A stretch of 64,000 bases of DNA. Origin: Apibacter mensalis (GTDB taxonomy: Bacteria > Bacteroidota > Bacteroidia > Flavobacteriales > Weeksellaceae). Of the stretch, positions 1,634 through 46,220 are shown piece by piece. Positions within the stretch are counted from its first letter, which is position 1. Each line of letters starts with the position of its first letter. The position numbers and the translations under genes are program-made. The stretch covers positions 186,001 to 250,000 of the forward strand of contig NZ_LIVM01000001.1 of NCBI RefSeq assembly GCF_001418685.1. Reading direction: 5' to 3'. A model generated the notes under the pieces. It saw only the letters and a program-made list of their open reading frames with translations. It searched no databases and was not told the origin of the DNA.

Positions 1634-3514
1634 ATGGATTTCTCATTACCAAATAAAATTCTTGAATCTTATTGGGGGTATAAAGAATTCAGACCTCTTC
1701 AAAAAGAGATTATTCTTACTATATTAGAGAGCCATGATACTATTGCTCTTTTACCTACCGGAGCAGGAAAATCTATTTGTTATCAAATCCCTTCGATTTT
1801 AGCTCAAGGTACCTGCATTGTTATCTCTCCATTATTAGCCCTTATTAAAGATCAGGTTAATTTATTAAAAAAGAAATTGATTCCTGCAGAGTATATTTCT
1901 TCTGATCAAACAGCGGATCAACAAATATCTGTATTTAATAAGTTGCGAAATAATGAATTGAAATTATTATATGTATCTCCGGAAAGATTATTAAATAAAA
2001 CCTTTTTAGAGATTATAAAAGATATAAAGATTTCGTTTATCGCCGTTGATGAAGCTCATTGTATTTCTGAATGGGGTAATGATTTTCGCCCATCCTATCA
2101 ACAAATTATAAAGTTCAGAGAATATATCGGTATTCAAATTCCATGTATGGCACTTACAGCAACGGCGACCGATAAGGTCCTATTTGAAATTATAAAAAAG
2201 TTAGACTTAAAGAATGTTCAGGTATTTAAAAAATCTTTTAAAAGAGAAAATCTTTCTTTACAAATATTACACGTAGGTGACAAATTTGGAGAAATTGAAA
2301 GGATATTACATAGATATAAGGGCTCTGGGATTATTTATTGTAGGACTAGAAATGAAACTAAAAATTTATCCGAAACTCTAAAAAGAAAAGGATTCGATGT
2401 TGAATTCTTTCATGCAGGATTATCAGCGCAGGAAAAAATTCAAAGACAAAGAGATTGGATGGAAAGCAATACCCAAGTCCTTATCTCAACTAATGCTTTT
2501 GGAATGGGTATTGATAAAAAAAATGTTCGTTTAATAATTCATCTTTCTCCTCCCTATTCATTAGAAAATTATTATCAAGAAGTTGGTCGTGCAGGAAGGG
2601 ACGGACTTTTGGCACATACATTTTTACTGTGGAATGAAGCAGAGCTTACAGATATCTATTCTTCGCTAACTCAAACCCTATCTTCAAAGTCTGAATATGA
2701 TAAAATTATTAGATATTTATTTTCAATGTATAGTATTGTTCCTAATGAACTACCGGATGCTATTTTTGACCTTGATTTGAAATCATTCCAACAACGTACA
2801 AAAATTAATAAAAGTAAAATTATTCCTATTTTGGAATTTCTTCATAACAGCTCAATACTTCAATGGAAATACGAACCTTCGGATAGTTTACTTAAAATAA
2901 ACTTCCCAATTGAAAGACTTGATACCAATTTTTATGGTAAAGATTCTATAATATTTGAAAAAATTGCCAGAAAAATAACCGGTGTTTTTTCTTATCAAAT
3001 AAAATTTGATGAAAGGAAATTAGCTGATAATCTTTTAATACCTCTTTCCGTGTTACATACAATACTTATAAAATATAATCAATCCGGAGATATTTCTTAT
3101 GTCGATGGAAATAAGCAAAAAATTCTTTTTTTAGAACCACGGAACGATCAAAAACTCTTAGGCATATATTGGAATGAATTTCAACTTATACAACAAAATA
3201 AATTAGTTAAATATAAGGAATTGGAATTTTTTATTAAAAATAAAAAATATTGCAGGATGAAATTAATTCTTGGATATTTCGGCGAAAAATCTAACCATAC
3301 ATGCGGAATGTGTGATGTATGTTGTAAATCCAAATTAGATGAACAATCTTATTTAAAAGATATTTTTACTTTTATAAAACAACAACCTAGAAGTAGAGAG
3401 GACATTTATGCTGAATTTCGAAATATTTCTTTTGAGAAAATTCATGAATGTTTACAGGATTTAATCTCAGAAAATAAGATTAAAGTATTAAATTTCAATA
3501 CCTATTCAGCTTAA
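1634..3514 (+). CDS. recQ: RecQ-family ATP-dependent DNA helicase
   Basis: This 3'-5' superfamily 2 DNA helicase acts in recombination and replication-fork repair. The 626-residue protein has the Walker A motif TGAGKS near residue 42, the DEAH box at 139-142 (DEAHCISEWG), the helicase C domain with the arginine-finger motif QEVGRAGRDG, and the RecQ zinc-binding cysteines C540, C557, C560 and C563. The region after the zinc domain carries a winged-helix-like stretch, but no recognisable HRDC domain can be seen, so this is the short RecQ form common in Bacteroidota. The ATG start at 1634 sits 28 bases after a -7 box. It is followed at 50 bases by ung, another DNA-repair gene in the same direction, so the pair may be cotranscribed. 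Confidence 0.95.
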   Translation: MDFSLPNKILESYWGYKEFRPLQKEIILTILESHDTIALLPTGAGKSICYQIPSILAQGTCIVISPLLALIKDQVNLLKKKLIPAEYISSDQTADQQISVFNKLRNNELKLLYVSPERLLNKTFLEIIKDIKISFIAVDEAHCISEWGNDFRPSYQQIIKFREYIGIQIPCMALTATATDKVLFEIIKKLDLKNVQVFKKSFKRENLSLQILHVGDKFGEIERILHRYKGSGIIYCRTRNETKNLSETLKRKGFDVEFFHAGLSAQEKIQRQRDWMESNTQVLISTNAFGMGIDKKNVRLIIHLSPPYSLENYYQEVGRAGRDGLLAHTFLLWNEAELTDIYSSLTQTLSSKSEYDKIIRYLFSMYSIVPNELPDAIFDLDLKSFQQRTKINKSKIIPILEFLHNSSILQWKYEPSDSLLKINFPIERLDTNFYGKDSIIFEKIARKITGVFSYQIKFDERKLADNLLIPLSVLHTILIKYNQSGDISYVDGNKQKILFLEPRNDQKLLGIYWNEFQLIQQNKLVKYKELEFFIKNKKYCRMKLILGYFGEKSNHTCGMCDVCCKSKLDEQSYLKDIFTFIKQQPRSREDIYAEFRNISFEKIHECLQDLISENKIKVLNFNTYSA

Positions 3515-3564
3515 TATACATTTTTATTTATAATATTTTTTTTATTTATTTTTACCTTTACCGA

Positions 3565-4224
3565 ATGAATATAGATATTGAAGTATCATGGAAAAATTTA
3601 TTAAAGACTGAATTTGAAAAACCATATTTTTCTTCTTTAATAAATTTCGTAAAACAAGAATATAAAGAACATACCTGTTATCCAAAAGGAAAAAACATTT
3701 TTAAAGCTTTTGAATTAACTCCATTTGATCAGGTAAAAGTAGTACTTTTAGGACAAGATCCTTATCATGGAGCAGGACAAGCTATGGGTTTATGTTTTTC
3801 TGTGCCCAATGGAATTGTATATCCTCCTTCTCTAAGGAATATTATTGTTGAATTAAAAAATGATACCGGTATAGAATTAAAGTCCGGGGATTTAACACCG
3901 TGGGCAAAACAGGGTGTTTTTTTGCTTAATGCTACTTTAACGGTGCGAGCACACCAAGCAGGTTCACACCAAAAAAAAGGATGGGAAACTTTCACTGATT
4001 CTATAATATATAAAATATCTGAAGAAAAAGAACACATTGTATTTATCTTATGGGGAAGTTACGCGCATCAAAAAATAAATTTAATTGATACTCGCAAACA
4101 TTTCATAATAAAATCCGTTCATCCTTCTCCTTTATCTGCGCATAGAGGCTTTTTCGGTTCAAAACCTTTTACTCGCACTAATGAATATTTAACTTCAAAA
4201 AAAATTGAGCCTATTCAGTGGTAA
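3565..4224 (+). CDS. ung: Uracil-DNA glycosylase (family 1, UNG)
   Basis: This enzyme removes uracil from DNA, which starts base-excision repair of deaminated cytosine or misincorporated dUMP. The 219 residues match the usual family length. The water-activating loop GQDPYHG carries catalytic Asp65. The DNA-intercalation and active-site loop HPSPLSAHRGFFG contains His186, which stabilises the leaving group. The uracil-binding block LLNATLTV is also present. Every family signature is intact. The stop codon lies inside the loop of the downstream terminator hairpin. It is probably cotranscribed with recQ. Confidence 0.97.
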   Translation: MNIDIEVSWKNLLKTEFEKPYFSSLINFVKQEYKEHTCYPKGKNIFKAFELTPFDQVKVVLLGQDPYHGAGQAMGLCFSVPNGIVYPPSLRNIIVELKNDTGIELKSGDLTPWAKQGVFLLNATLTVRAHQAGSHQKKGWETFTDSIIYKISEEKEHIVFILWGSYAHQKINLIDTRKHFIIKSVHPSPLSAHRGFFGSKPFTRTNEYLTSKKIEPIQW

Positions 4225-5395: not shown

Positions 5396-5974
5396 TTATT
5401 TACTATCTATTTTTAAATCATTATTATAGGGCAGAGTACCCTTATTTTTTTTCAATTTAAAATTCTTAAAGTCTTCTGAAGATTCGATTCCATTAACTGA
5501 AATATTGGTGGTTATTCCATCTGCTCTATAAATTTTAACGGTATCCTTAGAAAAAATTTTTCTTTCTTTTTTATTCCAAAAAATTTGATTGGTTTTTAAT
5601 GTATCTTTATCTGAATTGATAATAACAACATTCTTCCTTGCTTCATACCACCCTATTGTTTCAATTATTTTGGCATAATCTGCTTTTAAATGTCCCGGAT
5701 CTTTACCTTTTTGATAAAAATCCATATCCAAACCTTTAGGAAAAACCGTATATGGAGTTTGAACAAATTCATATTCATCCATAACAGGCGTTCTTAATTT
5801 AATAATTGCATATATCGAATCAGTCAAAGTTATAGTTGCATTATATATTCTTCTAGAGGCAAAATTGGTATTTTTTTCTCCTAAATCTCCCCCCTTTTCA
5901 TCCGAACATGATATAAAAATAACTAAAAAAAGTATAAAATAAAACCACCTTCTATTTTTTTTAATTTTTACCAT
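5396..5974 (-). CDS. lptC: LptC-like lipopolysaccharide export lipoprotein
   Basis: This is the membrane-anchored periplasmic component of the LPS transport bridge, passing LPS from the LptBFG ABC transporter to LptA. The 192-residue product has a basic N-terminus, a hydrophobic stretch (about 10-21) and a lipobox ending ISC (Cys23), so it is probably a lipoprotein, as is usual for the Bacteroidota form. The body contains the beta-strand repeats typical of LptC/OstA folds (ITLTDSIYAIIKL, ADYAKIIETIGWYEARKNVVI). It lies 41 bases downstream of the outer membrane barrel gene on the same strand. That barrel-lptC pairing is common in Flavobacteriia. Confidence 0.85.
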   Translation of the reverse strand: MVKIKKNRRWFYFILFLVIFISCSDEKGGDLGEKNTNFASRRIYNATITLTDSIYAIIKLRTPVMDEYEFVQTPYTVFPKGLDMDFYQKGKDPGHLKADYAKIIETIGWYEARKNVVIINSDKDTLKTNQIFWNKKERKIFSKDTVKIYRADGITTNISVNGIESSEDFKNFKLKKNKGTLPYNNDLKIDSK

Positions 5975-6015: not shown

Positions 6016-7287
6016 TTAATCATACTGCCTCTTTCTGAACCAAAGATCATCAAAATTAAATCCAACTTTAAAATTCACAAAATTTTCTTTAATTAAACCA
6101 TTAGATTTTGATCCTCTTTGCCCTAACTCTATCCCCAAATTAAGCATTGAGGGATCATGTTTTCCTGCTTTTCCTAAAGGAAGACCTAATCCTGCAGTAA
6201 GTCCATATTGATCAATAGTTTTATTACTTACATTTAGACCTGTATTTTCATAATACAACCCATATCGATAAATGATCTTTTCAAAATAAGACCTAAAACC
6301 GTTTATATTAGGCAAATACCATCCCCCTACCGCTATACGGTACTTATTTTTATAATCAAAATTTTCTTCCGGTATTTTTAATTTGAACTGGTTTGTAAAT
6401 TTAAGATCTGCTCCTAATGACCATTTATGTTCTTTTCCATAAGCAACTCCAATAGAGTATGAAGAAGGTAATTTTGCATCATGAGTTCCTTTAACATAGT
6501 TTAACGTATCTATTGATACTTTTTCATTATTATTATTATAATAATATGTTGAATATAAATAATTTATATCAGCATCTACGGTATGACCTATAGTATAGGT
6601 GGCCCCAATTTTTAGTAAGTGATTAGTACTTAATTTTTTGCGATAAGCAACTCCCAAGGTATAATCGAAAAAACCATATTCTTGCTTATTAAAAATACCG
6701 GAAATCAAATTTGCATTTTGTAATGATGCTTCTTGATCTTTTTTTAAATCTCCCCAAACATAACCGATTTTAGCTCCTAAAGAAAATTCATCGGATATAT
6801 TATATGAATACATACCACTGAATGCATTGAGTCCTCCTCTTCCCTTAAATAAGGATCTTTGATTTACTGATTCAGAATTTTCAGTATTTATATCATATCC
6901 TATGTTGGTGTAAGGTTGTAAGTTTACTCCTAATCTAGACTTAGTACCAACAGGAAAGGCTAGCGATAAATTAGCTAGATAAGTAGTGGATCGATCACTG
7001 CTTATGTCAGAAGTTTTAGCATGGGTATAATCTGTATTAATTACAATATTATAGCTGGTATATCTTAAGTTTCTGTTAGCTGCCGGATTTACAAAATTTG
7101 CTTCATTGATAAAATCTGAAATATATGAGGTTCCAATTCCCCCCATGGAAGAGATCATAATATCAGAATTAGTTTTACTCTCTCCTAAACCAAATGAGGA
7201 ATAAGGGGAGGTAGAAGTTTGTTGACTATAAGCTGCACTCAGAAAAAAGATAAATGATGATAATATTGAGAAAAATTTAATTTTCAT
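6016..7287 (-). CDS. Outer membrane beta-barrel protein (FadL/OmpP1-like hypothetical)
   Basis: The 423-residue product has a clear signal peptide ending YSQQ, then the N-terminal stretch TSPYSSFGLGES and a conserved VNPA block (NEANFVNPAANRNLRY). This arrangement is seen in flavobacterial outer membrane barrels related to OmpP1/FadL. Alternating Gly/Tyr-rich strands follow (for example GVAYRKKLS, SLGADLKFTNQFKLKI). The product is expected to sit in the outer membrane, with ligand unknown. In many Flavobacteriia this barrel gene lies between coaX and lptC. Here lptC follows, but coaX is about 26 kb away, so the group has been broken up. Confidence 0.75.
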   Translation of the reverse strand: MKIKFFSILSSFIFFLSAAYSQQTSTSPYSSFGLGESKTNSDIMISSMGGIGTSYISDFINEANFVNPAANRNLRYTSYNIVINTDYTHAKTSDISSDRSTTYLANLSLAFPVGTKSRLGVNLQPYTNIGYDINTENSESVNQRSLFKGRGGLNAFSGMYSYNISDEFSLGAKIGYVWGDLKKDQEASLQNANLISGIFNKQEYGFFDYTLGVAYRKKLSTNHLLKIGATYTIGHTVDADINYLYSTYYYNNNNEKVSIDTLNYVKGTHDAKLPSSYSIGVAYGKEHKWSLGADLKFTNQFKLKIPEENFDYKNKYRIAVGGWYLPNINGFRSYFEKIIYRYGLYYENTGLNVSNKTIDQYGLTAGLGLPLGKAGKHDPSMLNLGIELGQRGSKSNGLIKENFVNFKVGFNFDDLWFRKRQYD

Positions 7288-41758: not shown

Positions 41759-43195
41759 TTAAAACCTCATACCCAAGGTTAATATAAAATTATTCTGTAT
41801 GTTATTAACTTTTCCAAAGTAAGGCTTATCTAAGCTGATCGTAAGATTTGAGCCATCCATAGTATAAAAGTCTCCTGATAAAGTGGTGCGATAATCAGTC
41901 TTCATATATTGATATCCTAAATCTACAAAAAATTGTCCTATATCATATCCAGCTCCAAATGATAACTTATTTTTTTCTCCGACTAAGTAATTTTTAACAT
42001 ATACAGGATTAGCATCTGTATCCCATATTCCTGCTATAGAGTTATTTTTTACAGGAGAAGAGGCATAGGCATATCCTGCCCTTAATTTAAGCTCTTTAAA
42101 TCTATATTCAATACCTGCGCGATACTCTTGAGAATTTCTTACATAGTCATTTACAAAGTTATTATTTAACCTATAGTCAACATCACCTTTAAATTCCATA
42201 TCTTTATTGAAGTAATTAATGAAATCGAAATTAAATGCCAATGAATTGTCGTCATCCATAATATTGGATGCAAATGCCCCACTCAGTACTAATTTTCCGG
42301 GAGATACATTTTTATAATGGTCGTAATATACATAATCTTTTACAAATTGTCCTTTATCATTATAACCATATATCCATCTGTAATCTTCCATATCTGACCA
42401 CCAAATAGGTGAATGATATGCTGCCCCTAAACGAATTTCAGGTGTAATTTTACCAATTACCCCAACATTTAATCCAAAACCGTTGGCTTCTTGACTATAA
42501 GGTGTTAATTGCTCGTTAAATCTCATATATTCCCCATCCATTGTGTTTCTATGACCATACTCAGAATTTCGATCAATATTCAAATAATGCCAATCTAAAC
42601 CAATACCGAAATATAATCTGTCCATGTAATTTGTGGCAAGACTAAATTTCATTTTTGATTTATATCCATTGGTATATTGATCATAATTGACCATTTCATA
42701 CATTTGATCTACTTTATCTTTATTAGGGTATAAATAATTTAATTGGGTATTTCTAGAGAAGTTTACGTCATTATCGACTCTTTGATAAGAAAAATTTACT
42801 CCAACATTTACTTTAAACATATCCGATTCATCACCTAAGGCTAATGCTACACCTGCTCCGGGTATATTAAAGTTGGTATCGGTATTGGAATTTACCCCAT
42901 TACCCATAGTAGCTTTATTTTTATTTGACAAAACACTCATAGAAATATTTGCTACGGAGTTTCTAAAAATACCCAAACCGGCTGGATTTGTCTCTACGGC
43001 ACTTAAATCACCCCCTAAAGCTCCCATAGATCCACCCATTCCAATATATCGAGCTGTACCTGATGTATTATTAGAATTATCACCAAATATATTAAAAGCA
43101 TCGAATACATCATTGGGATAAAATCTGCTTGTTTGAGATTTACCTATCAAAACTATTGATGAAAGGATAAATCCGTATAACAATTTCTTGTTCAT
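41759..43195 (-). CDS. OmpP1/FadL-family outer membrane transport protein
   Basis: The 478-residue barrel protein has a signal peptide (cleavage near GKSQ) and the FadL-type opening (NDVFDAFNIFGDN; GTARYIGMGGSMGALGGDLSAVETNPAGLGIF). The GG-S-GALGGD and NPAG blocks mark the OmpP1/FadL family, which imports hydrophobic compounds across the outer membrane. It ends with an aromatic-final strand (ILTLGMRF) as barrels do. It lies 23 bases downstream of the aromatic lipoprotein gene on the same strand; the two are probably cotranscribed. The substrate is unknown. Confidence 0.9.
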   Translation of the reverse strand: MNKKLLYGFILSSIVLIGKSQTSRFYPNDVFDAFNIFGDNSNNTSGTARYIGMGGSMGALGGDLSAVETNPAGLGIFRNSVANISMSVLSNKNKATMGNGVNSNTDTNFNIPGAGVALALGDESDMFKVNVGVNFSYQRVDNDVNFSRNTQLNYLYPNKDKVDQMYEMVNYDQYTNGYKSKMKFSLATNYMDRLYFGIGLDWHYLNIDRNSEYGHRNTMDGEYMRFNEQLTPYSQEANGFGLNVGVIGKITPEIRLGAAYHSPIWWSDMEDYRWIYGYNDKGQFVKDYVYYDHYKNVSPGKLVLSGAFASNIMDDDNSLAFNFDFINYFNKDMEFKGDVDYRLNNNFVNDYVRNSQEYRAGIEYRFKELKLRAGYAYASSPVKNNSIAGIWDTDANPVYVKNYLVGEKNKLSFGAGYDIGQFFVDLGYQYMKTDYRTTLSGDFYTMDGSNLTISLDKPYFGKVNNIQNNFILTLGMRF

Positions 43196-43218: not shown

Positions 43219-44574
43219 TTATCTTCTACCACCTATAGAGCCACCGCGACTTCCTCCAATGGAGCCTCCTCCAAAGCCGCCACGACTACTTCCTCCAATT
43301 ATGGATCCGCGAGAACTTTCGCGGTTACCTGATTGGTAATTTGGAGAAGATATTCTAGAAGATCCTGATTTATAATTCCTTGATCCACCAAAAATTCCGG
43401 TGCTATTTCTTGATCCTCTTATTGTACCGGTATTATTATTAGTTGACTCTCTGCTAACTCCAGAGTTTTCAATACCCACCTGATTTCTTGATCCCCCTTG
43501 TATCCCGACATTATTTCTAGAACCTCTTATTATTCCACCGGATCTTGATCCATCAGTATTAGCCACATTATTGTTTCTTGAGCCTCCAATTACTGCCCCT
43601 GAATTGTTTCTTGAGTTATCAGTAGTAATTATCCTTGAATTAGCTCTCGAACCGCCTATAATTGCACCGTTCCTTCTTCCTTCGTTATTTCTTGAAATAT
43701 TAGATACAGACCCATTATTTATTCTTGAATTACCGATAACAGTGTTTCGACTTCCGGAAATAATGGCATTTCTACTATTTTGTCTTTGAATTTCTTGCAT
43801 CTGTCTTGAACGAGAAGTACCATATGATCTTGATATATATGAATTTCCTCTTGAACTATTCAAGTACGCAGATCTTGATCCGTAATTGGCATAATATCTT
43901 GGGCAACACCAACCATTATCCCAATAATGATGATGAGGTCTCCAATAACCAGGATAGTTCCAACCCCAGGAAGGTCCCCAATATGAAGGATAATCCCAGC
44001 CCCAACCGGACCAACCCCAGCCCCATCCTGCTGAAACGCCCCAATTCCAGCCGTAATAAGGGCTCCAATAACTTCTCCATCCCCAGTATGGGGTTCCCCA
44101 ATAATAGGAATAATAGGGACTATAGCCTCCGTAATAATAATTATTAATTACAGTTCCTCCATCCTCTCCCCATCCATCTCTATTATAATTGTAAGTATAC
44201 GATTGATTGTCATCAGCCTTGTAACGATTAACATTATTGGAAGAATTGATACTATTATTATCAGTAGTTTTTTCATCCTCATATAATAAATCACTTGCAT
44301 TAGCAGTTGGGTCAATATATTTTTTGCCTATTCTTACCTTGTTTTGACCCTGACTTTCATTGTATGAATTGGATGAGCTTGTAGTCTGATCATAGATATA
44401 ACCATAAGAATTTTGTTTATTACTGCTTTTTCGAATTTTATCTGAATAATATACACTATCTTCACCGGCATAAGAAGTTTGGCCAACATAACATGATGTT
44501 AAAAAACCCGACACCCATAACAGAGCACCAACCTTCATGAAAACTCGTCCTAAATTACAACTGATATTCTTCAT
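43219..44574 (-). CDS. Lipoprotein with Tyr/Trp/Gly-rich block and GSR repeats, unknown function
   Basis: I know of no assigned function. The 451-residue product has a lipobox LTSC (Cys28), so it should be a lipoprotein; the ATG at 44538 would give a more usual 15-residue signal (MKVGALLWVSGF). Residues 145-228 are extremely rich in Tyr, Trp, Gly and Pro (for example GWNWGVSAGWGWGWSGWGWD), followed by a HHH and CC patch. From about 250 to the end there are at least nine GSR units, often as GGSRN or RGSRN, in a Ser/Asn/Gly/Arg-rich tail ending GGSIGGRR. Such composition is typical of sticky or phase-separating surface proteins, which is inference. It precedes an OmpP1-like gene by 23 bases and diverges from proS. 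Confidence 0.75.
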   Translation of the reverse strand: MKNISCNLGRVFMKVGALLWVSGFLTSCYVGQTSYAGEDSVYYSDKIRKSSNKQNSYGYIYDQTTSSSNSYNESQGQNKVRIGKKYIDPTANASDLLYEDEKTTDNNSINSSNNVNRYKADDNQSYTYNYNRDGWGEDGGTVINNYYYGGYSPYYSYYWGTPYWGWRSYWSPYYGWNWGVSAGWGWGWSGWGWDYPSYWGPSWGWNYPGYWRPHHHYWDNGWCCPRYYANYGSRSAYLNSSRGNSYISRSYGTSRSRQMQEIQRQNSRNAIISGSRNTVIGNSRINNGSVSNISRNNEGRRNGAIIGGSRANSRIITTDNSRNNSGAVIGGSRNNNVANTDGSRSGGIIRGSRNNVGIQGGSRNQVGIENSGVSRESTNNNTGTIRGSRNSTGIFGGSRNYKSGSSRISSPNYQSGNRESSRGSIIGGSSRGGFGGGSIGGSRGGSIGGRR

Positions 44575-44747
44575 GATATTTTTTTAGTAGTTTATATATT
44601 TATTATATTTTTGTTCTTAAAACATTTTAAATTCGCAAAAGTCATACCAATTAAGAAATATTTATTTGTAGCAACAGCAAGGTGACAAAGTATCTTAAAA
44701 ATATGGCAGTAAATTATAGAAAAAGTTAAAAAACAGTAGAAAGCATT

Positions 44748-46220
44748 ATGGCAACACTTACATCAAGAGAAGAAGATTACAGTAAATGGTATAACGAACT
44801 GGTAATAAAAGCTGATATGGCTGAAAATTCCGGGGTTAGAGGATGTATGGTTATAAAACCTTATGGTTATGCTATCTGGGAAAAAATGCAACGGCAATTG
44901 GATCAGATGTTTAAAGACACCGGACATGAAAATGCTTATTTTCCGTTATTTATTCCCAAATCATATTTATCTAAAGAATCAGATCATGTGGAAGGATTTG
45001 CCAAAGAATGTGCTGTGGTTACTCATTACAGATTAAAAAATTCTCCTGACGGGAATGGTGTACAAGTGGATCCGAATGCTAAATTGGAAGAGGAATTGAT
45101 TGTTCGGCCTACCTCGGAAACTATAATATGGAACACTTATAAAAACTGGATAAAATCTCATAGAGATCTGCCTATTTTGATTAATCAATGGGCTAATGTA
45201 GTTCGTTGGGAAATGAGAACCCGATTATTTTTGAGAACTGCTGAATTTTTATGGCAAGAAGGCCACACCGCACATGTATCCAGAGAAGAAGCTATTGATG
45301 AAGCTGAAAAAATGTTAAAAGTTTATACCGAATTTGTTGAAAATTTTATGGCAATCCCAGTAATTCAAGGGGTAAAATCTCCTGCAGAAAGATTTGCAGG
45401 TGCTGAAGAAACTTATTGCATTGAGGCAATGATGCAAGATGGTAAAGCTTTACAGGCCGGAACTTCTCATTTTTTGGGTCAAAATTTTGCCAAAGCATTC
45501 GATGTAAAATATCAATCTAAAGAGGGTAAACAAGAATATGTTTGGGCCACTTCATGGGGAGTATCAACACGTCTTATTGGTGCATTAATCATGTCTCACT
45601 CTGATAATAATGGCTTAGTATTACCTCCAAATATCGCTCCTATACAAGTAGTAATTGTGCCAATACATAGAAATGAAGAACAACTAAAAGCTATTTCTGA
45701 ATTAGCGGTTATTCTTACATCCCAGCTAAAAAAAATGGGAATCAGCGTAAAATTTGACGATAGAATTGAATATAAACCGGGATGGAAATTTAATGAATAT
45801 GAGTTAAAAGGCATACCTGTTCGAGTTACAATAGGCCCTAAGGATCTTGAAAATAAACAAGTCGAAATAGCTCGAAGAGATAAGTTAGAAAAACATCAAC
45901 ATTCTATAGATAGATTAGCTGAACACATTCAAAATTTATTGCTAGATATTCAACAAAATATTTTCAATAAAGCTAAATTGCACAGAGACTCATTAATAAC
46001 TGAAGTAAATTCATATGAGGAATTTAAAAAAATATTAGATGAAAAAGGTGGATTTATCTCTGCACATTGGGACGGTTCTGTGGAGGTTGAAGAAAAAATA
46101 AAAGCTGAAACGAAAGCAACTATTCGTTGCATACCTCTTGATGCTAAAGAAGAAAATGGTATATGTATATATTCCGGAAATCCTTCCAAAAGAAGAGTGT
46201 TATTTGCCAGGGCTTATTAA
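44748..46220 (+). CDS. proS: Prolyl-tRNA synthetase (short, archaeal/eukaryotic-type)
   Basis: This enzyme charges tRNA-Pro with proline. The 490-residue enzyme is class II: motif 2 area [18 protein letters not shown] and [29 protein letters not shown], motif 3 [26 protein letters not shown]. It then has the anticodon-binding domain and a C-terminal zinc-like domain ending in the typical terminal Tyr (FARAY). It lacks the editing insertion found in the longer bacterial ProS. Most Bacteroidota carry this short form. It is a single gene, with the aromatic lipoprotein gene diverging upstream. Confidence 0.96.

What the first reader, a model, noticed from the sequence alone, without database searches (positions are those of the whole stretch)
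43219..44574. Aromatic/GSR-repeat lipoprotein next to a FadL-type barrel
Residues 145-228 are dominated by Tyr, Trp, Gly and Pro. A long tail then carries at least nine GSR units in a Ser/Asn/Gly/Arg-rich matrix, on a probable lipoprotein. Arg-Tyr/Trp-Gly composition of this type favours sticky or condensate-forming behaviour and could act as a surface adhesive or matrix protein. The 23-base gap to an OmpP1-like gene suggests a paired role. The repeat copy number may vary between strains.
Basis: partly seen in the sequence, partly recalled or inferred. Interest (0 to 1): 0.5.

Follow-up and report, generated by a model that had tools for sequence, protein, structure and literature searches.

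The report
Disordered lipoprotein paired with FadL-type barrel
The gene encodes a floppy, Tyr/Trp- and Arg-rich lipoprotein that is not a one-off repeat protein: nearly every relative examined pairs the same kind of protein with the same pore-like outer-membrane protein, and nothing found here gives either of them a function.

Summary
ORF 43219-44574(-) is a 451-aa probable lipoprotein with an 84-aa Tyr/Trp/Gly/Pro block and a Ser/Gly/Asn/Arg tail with 10 GSR units (shuffled mean 1.2), 23 bp from a FadL-fold gene. Genus: Apibacter.

The interpretation needs changing. The protein belongs to an unnamed family with fixed order: signal and lipid anchor, D(D/G)(V/I)Y motif about 11 residues later, aromatic block, Arg-rich tail. 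It lies upstream of one kind of FadL-type barrel, usually divergent from prolyl-tRNA synthetase: within 1 kb in 84 of 87 loci after checking by eye, and in 80 of 80 named loci. The barrel profile matches 218 of 296 genomes of the phylum. Four genomes checked that lack the barrel also lack the partner.

The barrel is not BamG; this genome's BamG is elsewhere in the window (6016-7287). The lipoprotein lacks the Bacteroidota surface-export signal (family 0 of 104, other lipobox ORFs 16 of 100 by one rule), so a surface adhesin is unlikely. Some clades lack the lipid anchor but keep the motif.

Best reading: a periplasm-facing, disordered accessory subunit of a FadL-type outer-membrane system. Pairing is shown; docking and function are inferred. 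Repeat number varies between species; strains were not tested.

The parts
43219..44574 (-). P0001, 451-aa disordered lipoprotein (partner of the FadL-type barrel)
44494..44574 (-). signal peptide, residues 1-27, followed by lipobox Cys28 (44491-44493)
   Evidence: sequence; predicted helix 5-29; Cys28 invariant in the 28 aligned homologues
44446..44463 (-). N-terminal motif EDSVYY (residues 38-43), the form here of the family motif D(D/G)(V/I)Y
   Evidence: D39, Y42, Y43 invariant in 28 homologues; motif 6-20 residues after Cys in 58 of 71 thinned lipoproteins, shuffled mean 1.6, maximum 9
44128..44178 (-). WG motif region, residues 133-149 (W135, G136 invariant in 28 homologues)
43891..44142 (-). 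aromatic Tyr/Trp/Gly/Pro block, residues 145-228; lowest dN/dS of the three parts of the protein in the pairs that could be computed
43222..43890 (-). Ser/Gly/Asn/Arg tail, residues 229-451, 10 GSR, 31 Arg and 1 Lys, ends in RR
41759..43195 (-). P0002, 478-aa FadL-fold outer-membrane barrel, second gene of the pair (gap 23 bp)
   Evidence: PF03349 34.6 bits; AlphaFold2 pLDDT 87; CymD, FadL, TodX Z about 31-33
44748..46220 (+). prolyl-tRNA synthetase, divergently transcribed conserved neighbour
   Evidence: Pfam; divergent upstream in 69 of 87 extended loci and 75 of 80 named loci
44575..44747 (.). 173-bp intergenic region between the pair and prolyl-tRNA synthetase

Best explanation
The two genes form a conserved two-gene outer-membrane module. 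The second gene is a FadL-fold barrel of its own subfamily. The first is its partner: an intrinsically disordered protein, normally held by a lipid anchor in the inner (periplasmic) leaflet of the outer membrane. Proposed mechanism: the D(D/G)(V/I)Y motif, about 11 residues from the anchor, docks on the barrel; the Tyr/Trp block takes up or presents hydrophobic cargo at the periplasmic mouth of the barrel; the Arg-rich tail binds anionic envelope polymers (peptidoglycan, lipopolysaccharide core, phospholipid head groups) and holds the complex in place. Shown by sequence: the pairing, its breadth, the fixed order of parts, the constraint on the aromatic block, the missing surface-export signal, and retention of the motif where the lipid anchor is absent. 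Predicted: disorder. Inferred: periplasmic orientation, docking, cargo binding, tail binding.
For: Adjacency: a composition rule finds a partner within 400 bp upstream of the barrel in 82 of 87 extended loci; after checking by eye the typical partner is within 1 kb in 84 of 87. Named loci 80 of 80; loci from deeper branches 18 of 20 by eye within 1.5 kb. Where separated, both genes are still present: G011 (partner on contig 82) and G075 (partner beside prolyl-tRNA synthetase). Co-absence: G047, G051, G097 and G155 lack a close barrel homologue, show no partner beside prolyl-tRNA synthetase and none in an A1 profile search. Motif: 58 of 71 thinned lipoproteins, shuffled mean 1.6, maximum 9 of 1000 rounds. 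Lipid anchor absent but motif near the mature N-terminus in 13 curated rows; 6 changes on the tree, at least 2 forced by well-supported branches. Export signal: 0 of 139; 0 of 104 against 16 of 100 other lipobox ORFs. dN/dS in the two closest species: aromatic block 0.018 and 0.032, barrel 0.042 and 0.060, tail 0.16 and 0.23, N-region 0.34 and 0.28. Last 120 residues Arg/(Arg+Lys) median 1.00 against 0.43 in the barrel of the same locus; higher in 172 of 178. Barrel fold: CymD, FadL, TodX highest in VIA-align, Foldseek agrees.
Against: No experiment and no expression data were found for this pair. FadL folds also serve in BAM (BamG) and type IX secretion (PorV), so the fold does not prove transport. 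The export-signal rule is a consensus and may miss surface proteins; the control set contains some false lipoboxes (for example barrels). In more distant species (L004, L008) the aromatic block is still the lowest part of the lipoprotein (0.18, 0.27) but above the barrel (0.086, 0.21). In the deepest branches the D(D/G)(V/I)Y motif is not recognisable: 8 of the 13 thinned misses are CYT(Q/I)-type lipoproteins. In G226 (a complete single contig) the partner's N-terminal part and its tail lie in two frames, so that copy is broken or misread. L298 and L302 gave no partner.
Confidence: 0.4

Rival explanations
1. Envelope tether or spacer: the barrel is only an anchor, and the long Arg-rich disordered tail links the outer membrane to peptidoglycan or another anionic polymer, setting periplasm width or stiffness.
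For: Arg-rich tail with Arg in the last three residues of 169 of 178 partners; periplasmic orientation suggested by the missing export signal; tail length varies between species.
Against: Does not explain why the aromatic block has the lowest dN/dS of the protein or why the partner gene is a FadL fold; no Pfam match to a peptidoglycan-binding domain in P0001 or in ten diverse partners.
Confidence: 0.2
2. Outer-membrane biogenesis accessory: the pair works like BamG-BamH, as a FadL-type barrel with a lipoprotein that helps assemble or check outer-membrane proteins.
For: BamG is a FadL-family barrel bound to the lipoprotein BamH, with an N-terminal extension relative to FadL (PMC12611786, PMC12578637, passages); FadL residues 1-2 align to P0002 model residue 34, so P0002 also carries extra residues after its signal peptide; wide conservation in the phylum.
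Against: P0002 is not BamG: a 29-sequence profile reaches no BamG chain up to E 10, and this genome has a separate BamG. The partner is predicted disordered and lacks the export signal, unlike BamH. The BAM subunits named in the passages read do not include such a protein.
Confidence: 0.2
3. Surface adhesin or matrix protein: the sticky tail is displayed outside the cell.
For: Composition suits cation-pi stickiness; predicted disorder; repeat length varies between species.
Against: Export signal in 0 of 139, and 0 of 104 against 16 of 100 other lipobox ORFs; no adhesion or secretion family above cut-off for P0001; adhesins are rarely this conserved in place and order of parts across a phylum (general knowledge).
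Confidence: 0.1
4. Chaperone or gate for its own barrel only: the partner helps fold or gate the FadL-type barrel and has no separate role.
For: Close spacing: in the 82 loci that pass the rule the gaps run from -23 to 198 bp, most under 60; co-absence in the four genomes checked.
Against: Does not explain the length and charge of the tail; no structure of the complex could be predicted here.
Confidence: 0.1

Closest known systems
BamG-BamH (and the BamG2-BamH2 gene pair) of Bacteroidota, PMC12611786 and PMC12578637
   Same: A FadL-family 14-strand barrel with a lipoprotein partner; BamG2 and BamH2 lie in a putative operon; extra N-terminal residues in the barrel relative to FadL.
   Different: P0002 is a separate subfamily by sequence. 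The partner is predicted disordered, low in complexity and without the surface-export signal.
FadL / TodX / CymD outer-membrane transport proteins (PF03349)
   Same: Fold (Z about 31-33); PF03349 above cut-off.
   Different: Low identity (about 16-18%). E. coli FadL has no known lipoprotein partner (recalled). This genome also has a closer FadL homologue on contig 8 (167 bits).
PorV of type IX secretion
   Same: FadL-like barrel in the same phylum (Z 25.9).
   Different: Only a marginal profile match (E 0.038).
Fjoh_4940-Fjoh_4941 (lipoprotein gene beside a putative FadL homologue, PMC12045153)
   Same: Lipoprotein gene near a FadL-type gene in a flavobacterium; both proteins rise in the outer membrane when TamL is depleted (2.6-fold and 5.6-fold; Fjoh_4941 falls in vesicles, 0.4).
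   Different: Whether it is the same family could not be tested: no sequence or locus tag could be matched.

Membership tests
BamG | sequence relationship to the solved BamG chains (9n2d_B, 9hiv_F, 9hjm_F) | tested here: not met
   Profile of 29 P0002 homologues finds TbuX, PorV and 3dwo but no BamG up to E 10; a BamG from G226 finds 9n2d_B at 7.7e-215 and maps to window 6016-7287, which itself matches 9n2d_B at 4.2e-48
BamG | conserved N-terminal extension of about 10-12 residues relative to FadL | tested here: inconclusive
   FadL residues 1-2 align to model residue 34 while the mature protein probably starts near 21; homologues outside the genus are shorter there
BamG | binding to BamA | not testable with these tools
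   needs pull-down
FadL/TodX outer-membrane transport protein family (PF03349) | profile score above the curated cut-off | tested here: met
   34.6 against 29.7 bits
FadL/TodX outer-membrane transport protein family (PF03349) | FadL fold | tested here: met
   AlphaFold2 pLDDT 87; Z about 31-33 over 325-362 residues with CymD and FadL; strands were not counted one by one
FadL/TodX outer-membrane transport protein family (PF03349) | uptake of hydrophobic molecules | not testable with these tools
   needs uptake assay
BamH | folded domains | tested here: not met
   P0001 pLDDT 43.5, 401 of 451 residues under 50; a prediction on a low-complexity alignment
BamH | surface lipoprotein with export signal (2 or more acidic residues in the first six after Cys) | tested here: not met
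   P0001 has none after Cys28; family 0 of 139
bacterial lipoprotein | signal peptide with lipobox cysteine | tested here: met
   FLTSC28 after a hydrophobic stretch, Cys invariant in 28 homologues; by sequence pattern, no predictor run
surface adhesin | exposure on the cell surface | not testable with these tools
   needs protease accessibility; the export signal is absent

The most novel reading that the evidence does not exclude
A phylum-wide outer-membrane machine in which a FadL-type barrel recruits an obligate, disordered aromatic-plus-arginine protein that forms a condensate-like layer on the periplasmic side of the outer membrane, serving as a sink or relay for hydrophobic molecules. 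It would be a conserved bacterial outer-membrane complex whose working part is a low-complexity sticker protein, a kind I know of no example of.
Probability: 0.12. Interest if true: 0.85.

Novelty: new variant of a known kind. Interest (0 to 1): 0.58.

Why it matters
The barrel is found in 218 of 296 sampled genomes and 127 of 140 genera of the phylum, and its partner lies beside it in nearly all loci examined. The partner matched no curated family above cut-off in the members tested, and the paper searches listed in the report found no study of the pair. Bacteroidota outer membranes are known for unusual barrel-lipoprotein complexes; this would be another one, with a disordered partner in place of a folded one. 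The fixed order of parts gives clear tests (motif, aromatic block, Arg tail).

Tried and rejected
Considered and rejected: P0002 as BamG; P0001 as BamH-like; chance repeats; a gene duplication in G008 - the two copies lie at the two ends of a single contig with the same neighbours in the same order and a broken topoisomerase gene in one copy, so an untrimmed assembly overlap is more likely.

Led nowhere: Pfam and NCBIfam for the partner. P0001 has only a sub-threshold Mre11_DNA_bind hit (E 0.37) and none in NCBIfam; ten diverse partners have no Pfam hit up to E 1; of 28 aligned members one has a weak NCBIfam hit (E 0.0054). AlphaFold2 of P0001 gave no fold, so no fold search was made with it. 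Paper searches listed no study of this pair that I recognised; the library holds only CC0, CC BY and CC BY-SA papers. I recalled that Bacteroides homologues were once annotated 'vitellogenin II precursor'; one search did not support it.

Counts and their weak points. The partner rule takes the ORF richest in S+G+R+N+Y+W within 400 bp upstream on the same strand, over 33% and at least 120 aa. The 87 extended loci are one per genome, fetched because P0002 matched; not every match was fetched so. 82 pass. Of these, L130, L131 and L134 pick a small second lipoprotein and L136 a wrong frame; that leaves 78 with the typical partner. In those four and in L138 the typical partner lies one gene further up, 435-878 bp from the barrel; in L109 it is there once the barrel's overlong start is set aside: 84 of 87. 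The other three: L108 (contig end), L114 and L069 (partner elsewhere in the genome). In L065 (G226) the partner is split over two frames. Of 28 short loci, several of them the same genomes, 27 pass and L044 is unresolved. In one search, L298 and L302 gave no partner. Prolyl-tRNA synthetase is not found next to the pair in 18 of 87 (contig ends or deep branches), 5 of 80 named and 15 of 20 deep loci. The 178 distinct partners include L130, L131, L134, L136 and fragments. The lipobox rule set aside 22 partners with missing starts and 17 without a match (10 look like true type-I signals, the rest are wrong starts, wrong frames or a missed lipobox); at least two of its 139 (L118, L129) are doubtful. 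Of the 139, 9 have one acidic residue in the first six. The motif pattern was widened by one letter (N) over that; the total, 125 of 139, is the same. In one search the 100 'others' include some barrels and other false lipoboxes, and the 104 were partly picked by tail composition. For the tree (quick method, 85 rows, 9 without a state) up to 23 rows were left out beforehand, mostly close relatives, plus the unclear L069, L108, L109, L136, L138. By my reading of the list, about 22 of the 40 rows of A3 come from genomes in the sample, and weak matches there (for example family f30, about 1e-21) may be paralogues. 78 of those 296 genomes had no match at 1e-20; of these only G097 and G155 were checked for the partner. 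The A1 profile used for absence is built from Weeksellaceae and similar sequences, so absence in G097 and G155 rests mainly on the prolyl-tRNA synthetase neighbourhood. dN/dS could not be computed for several segments because synonymous sites are saturated.

Papers, what I saw: PMC12611786, passages; PMC12578637, section 7 whole and passages; PMC12045153, passages; PMC9431301, passages (no useful link); the others, search listings only.

Full report
What is there. The reported ORF is real: 451 aa, 43219-44574 on the minus strand, with a signal peptide, a lipobox ending in Cys28, an 84-residue block of Tyr, Trp, Gly and Pro (59 of 84 residues) and a 223-residue tail of Ser, Gly, Asn and Arg. 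The tail holds 10 GSR units; shuffled tails hold 1.2 on average and never more than 6 in 5000 tries. The units are degenerate: Tandem Repeats Finder reports no array in the tail. The downstream gene starts 23 bp away, passes the Pfam cut-off for FadL-type proteins and is followed by a convergent MscL gene; upstream, prolyl-tRNA synthetase is transcribed away from the pair.

The organism. Two of the eight same-genus genomes have contigs of the same lengths as records named Apibacter muscae (G003) and A. adventoris (G002), so the genus is Apibacter. Nine genomes of it were searched, the window's own included.

A family, not an oddity. Homologues of the barrel were found in 57 of 60 relatives and 62 of 198 phylum genomes with P0002 alone, and in 218 of 296 phylum genomes, 127 of 140 genera, with a 40-sequence profile. 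Upstream lies nearly always a protein of the same build. A composition rule finds it within 400 bp in 82 of 87 extended loci. Four of these 82 are the wrong ORF (three small second lipoproteins, one wrong frame), but by eye the typical partner is within 1 kb of the barrel in 84 of 87. It is there in 80 of 80 named loci and, by eye within 1.5 kb, in 18 of 20 loci from deep branches of the phylum. Prolyl-tRNA synthetase is divergent upstream in 69 of 87, 75 of 80 and 5 of 20. The named loci include Chryseobacterium, Epilithonimonas, Flavobacterium, Maribacter and, from metagenome bins, Bacteroidales. Exceptions were followed. In G011 and G075 both genes exist but apart; in G054 contigs break at the place; in G040 the partner is there once the barrel's start is read correctly. 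G047, G051 (a 345-kb genome), G097 and G155 have no close barrel homologue, no partner beside prolyl-tRNA synthetase, and none by an A1 profile. This fits keeping or losing both, though four genomes are few and most genomes without the barrel were not checked. In G226 the partner is split over two frames, which I leave as it is.

Order of parts. Across 178 distinct partners (a few of them fragments or the wrong ORF) the strongest aromatic window lies in the first half (median relative position 0.37; median 43% Tyr+Trp+Phe over 60 residues), the last 120 residues are two-thirds Ser+Gly+Arg+Asn at the median, and Arg is in the last three residues of 169 of 178. Basic residues in the last 120 are almost only Arg: Arg/(Arg+Lys) has a median of 1.00, against 0.43 in the barrel of the same locus, and is higher in 172 of 178. 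About 11 residues after the lipobox Cys (range 10-16) lies a motif D(D/G)(V/I)Y. In 71 lipoproteins thinned for similarity 58 have it 6-20 residues after Cys, against a shuffled mean of 1.6 and a maximum of 9 in 1000 rounds. Eight of the 13 misses are CYT(Q/I)-type lipoproteins of deep branches.

Selection. Between the window species and its closest relative (G008), dN/dS is 0.018 in the aromatic block, 0.16 in the tail, 0.34 in the N-region and 0.042 in the barrel; for the next species (G004) 0.032, 0.23, 0.28 and 0.060. In L004 and L008 the aromatic block stays the lowest part of the lipoprotein (0.18 and 0.27) but lies above the barrel (0.086 and 0.21). Synonymous sites are near saturation for most pairs, and some values could not be computed.

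Location. In Bacteroidota, lipoproteins with two or more acidic residues in the first six after Cys are taken as surface exposed (rule as stated in PMC12578637, passage). None of 139 family lipoproteins meets it, and 9 have one such residue. With one stricter lipobox rule, 0 of 104 family members meet it, against 16 of 100 other ORFs in the same DNA; those 100 include some false lipoboxes. This points to the periplasmic face but is no proof. In 13 curated rows the partner has an ordinary signal peptide, and the motif falls near the mature N-terminus, as in AQ-FDDLYYDP; the tree needs 6 changes of this state, at least 2 forced by well-supported branches. So lipidation is not what the family conserves most. 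The motif is kept, which suggests that it binds something, most simply the barrel.

The barrel. AlphaFold2 gives a good model (pLDDT 87). The closest solved structures are CymD, FadL and TodX (Z about 31-33), then BamG of three species (27-30) and PorV (26); Z values within 1 are ties. By sequence it is not BamG: a profile of its relatives misses all BamG chains, and the genome's BamG lies in the same window at 6016-7287. A more typical FadL homologue lies on contig 8. This genome therefore has at least three FadL-type barrels.

The partner's fold. AlphaFold2 with 28 homologues gives pLDDT 43.5; beyond the signal helix only residues 258-266 are helical. I read this as disorder, with the caveat that low-complexity sequence is hard to align.

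How it may work. The best-supported reading is an accessory subunit of a FadL-type outer-membrane system, held at the periplasmic face, docked by the N-terminal motif, with the Tyr/Trp block in contact with hydrophobic cargo or the barrel mouth and the Arg tail in contact with anionic polymers. The pairing and the order of parts are shown; the rest is inference.

What is known. No Pfam or NCBIfam family above cut-off covers the partners tested: P0001 in both, ten diverse partners in Pfam, 28 members in NCBIfam with one weak hit. Seven paper searches listed no study of the pair that I recognised. The nearest in kind are BamG-BamH and BamG2-BamH2 (PMC12611786, PMC12578637). A lipoprotein and FadL-type pair in F. 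johnsoniae, Fjoh_4940-4941, rises in the outer membrane when TamL is depleted (2.6-fold and 5.6-fold, PMC12045153, passages); whether it is this pair I could not tell.

Repeat number. GSR counts in the tail are 10, 10, 17, 6, 5, 7, 8, 4 and 5 in nine species of the genus; in G004, with 17, a 30-residue unit is present four times in tandem. Between-strain variation remains untested.

Noticed in passing
window 6016-7287 (-): BamG, the FadL-type subunit of the Bacteroidota BAM complex (4.2e-48 to solved BamG 9n2d_B); no Pfam match up to E 0.001. An LptC-family gene (5396-5974) follows it.
   Followed up: partly
L067 and L068 (G008 contig 1, both ends): About 11 kb is repeated at the two ends of a single-contig genome, with a broken topoisomerase gene in one copy; probably an untrimmed assembly overlap, not a duplication.
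   Followed up: partly
L130, L134, L136/L278, L286: In some deep-branch loci a second small lipoprotein with a CxxC(H) sequence lies between the typical partner and the barrel, as if a heme- or metal-binding protein had joined the locus; L131, L138 and L288 have a small second lipoprotein too, without that sequence as far as seen.
   Followed up: partly
L133, L135, L137, L139, L278, L283, L284, L289, L292, L293: Deep-branch loci carry a further gene of about 255-320 aa upstream on the same strand with a shared PTAG(I/V/M) stretch near its N-terminus; a possible third member of the locus.
   Followed up: no
L031 (genome contig 8): A second, more canonical FadL homologue of the same genome (167 bits to PF03349).
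   Followed up: partly
L077 (151-942 and 943-2178): A gene of 263 aa directly before a BamG-like barrel (matches three BamG chains) in G226; it may be the BamH2-BamG2 pair.
   Followed up: no
L065 (G226), 2844-3841: The partner gene is split over two reading frames in this single-contig genome: broken or a sequencing error.
   Followed up: no
window 43936-44004: The only tandem array in the gene by Tandem Repeats Finder is a 36-bp, 1.9-copy unit in the aromatic block, not in the GSR tail.
   Followed up: no
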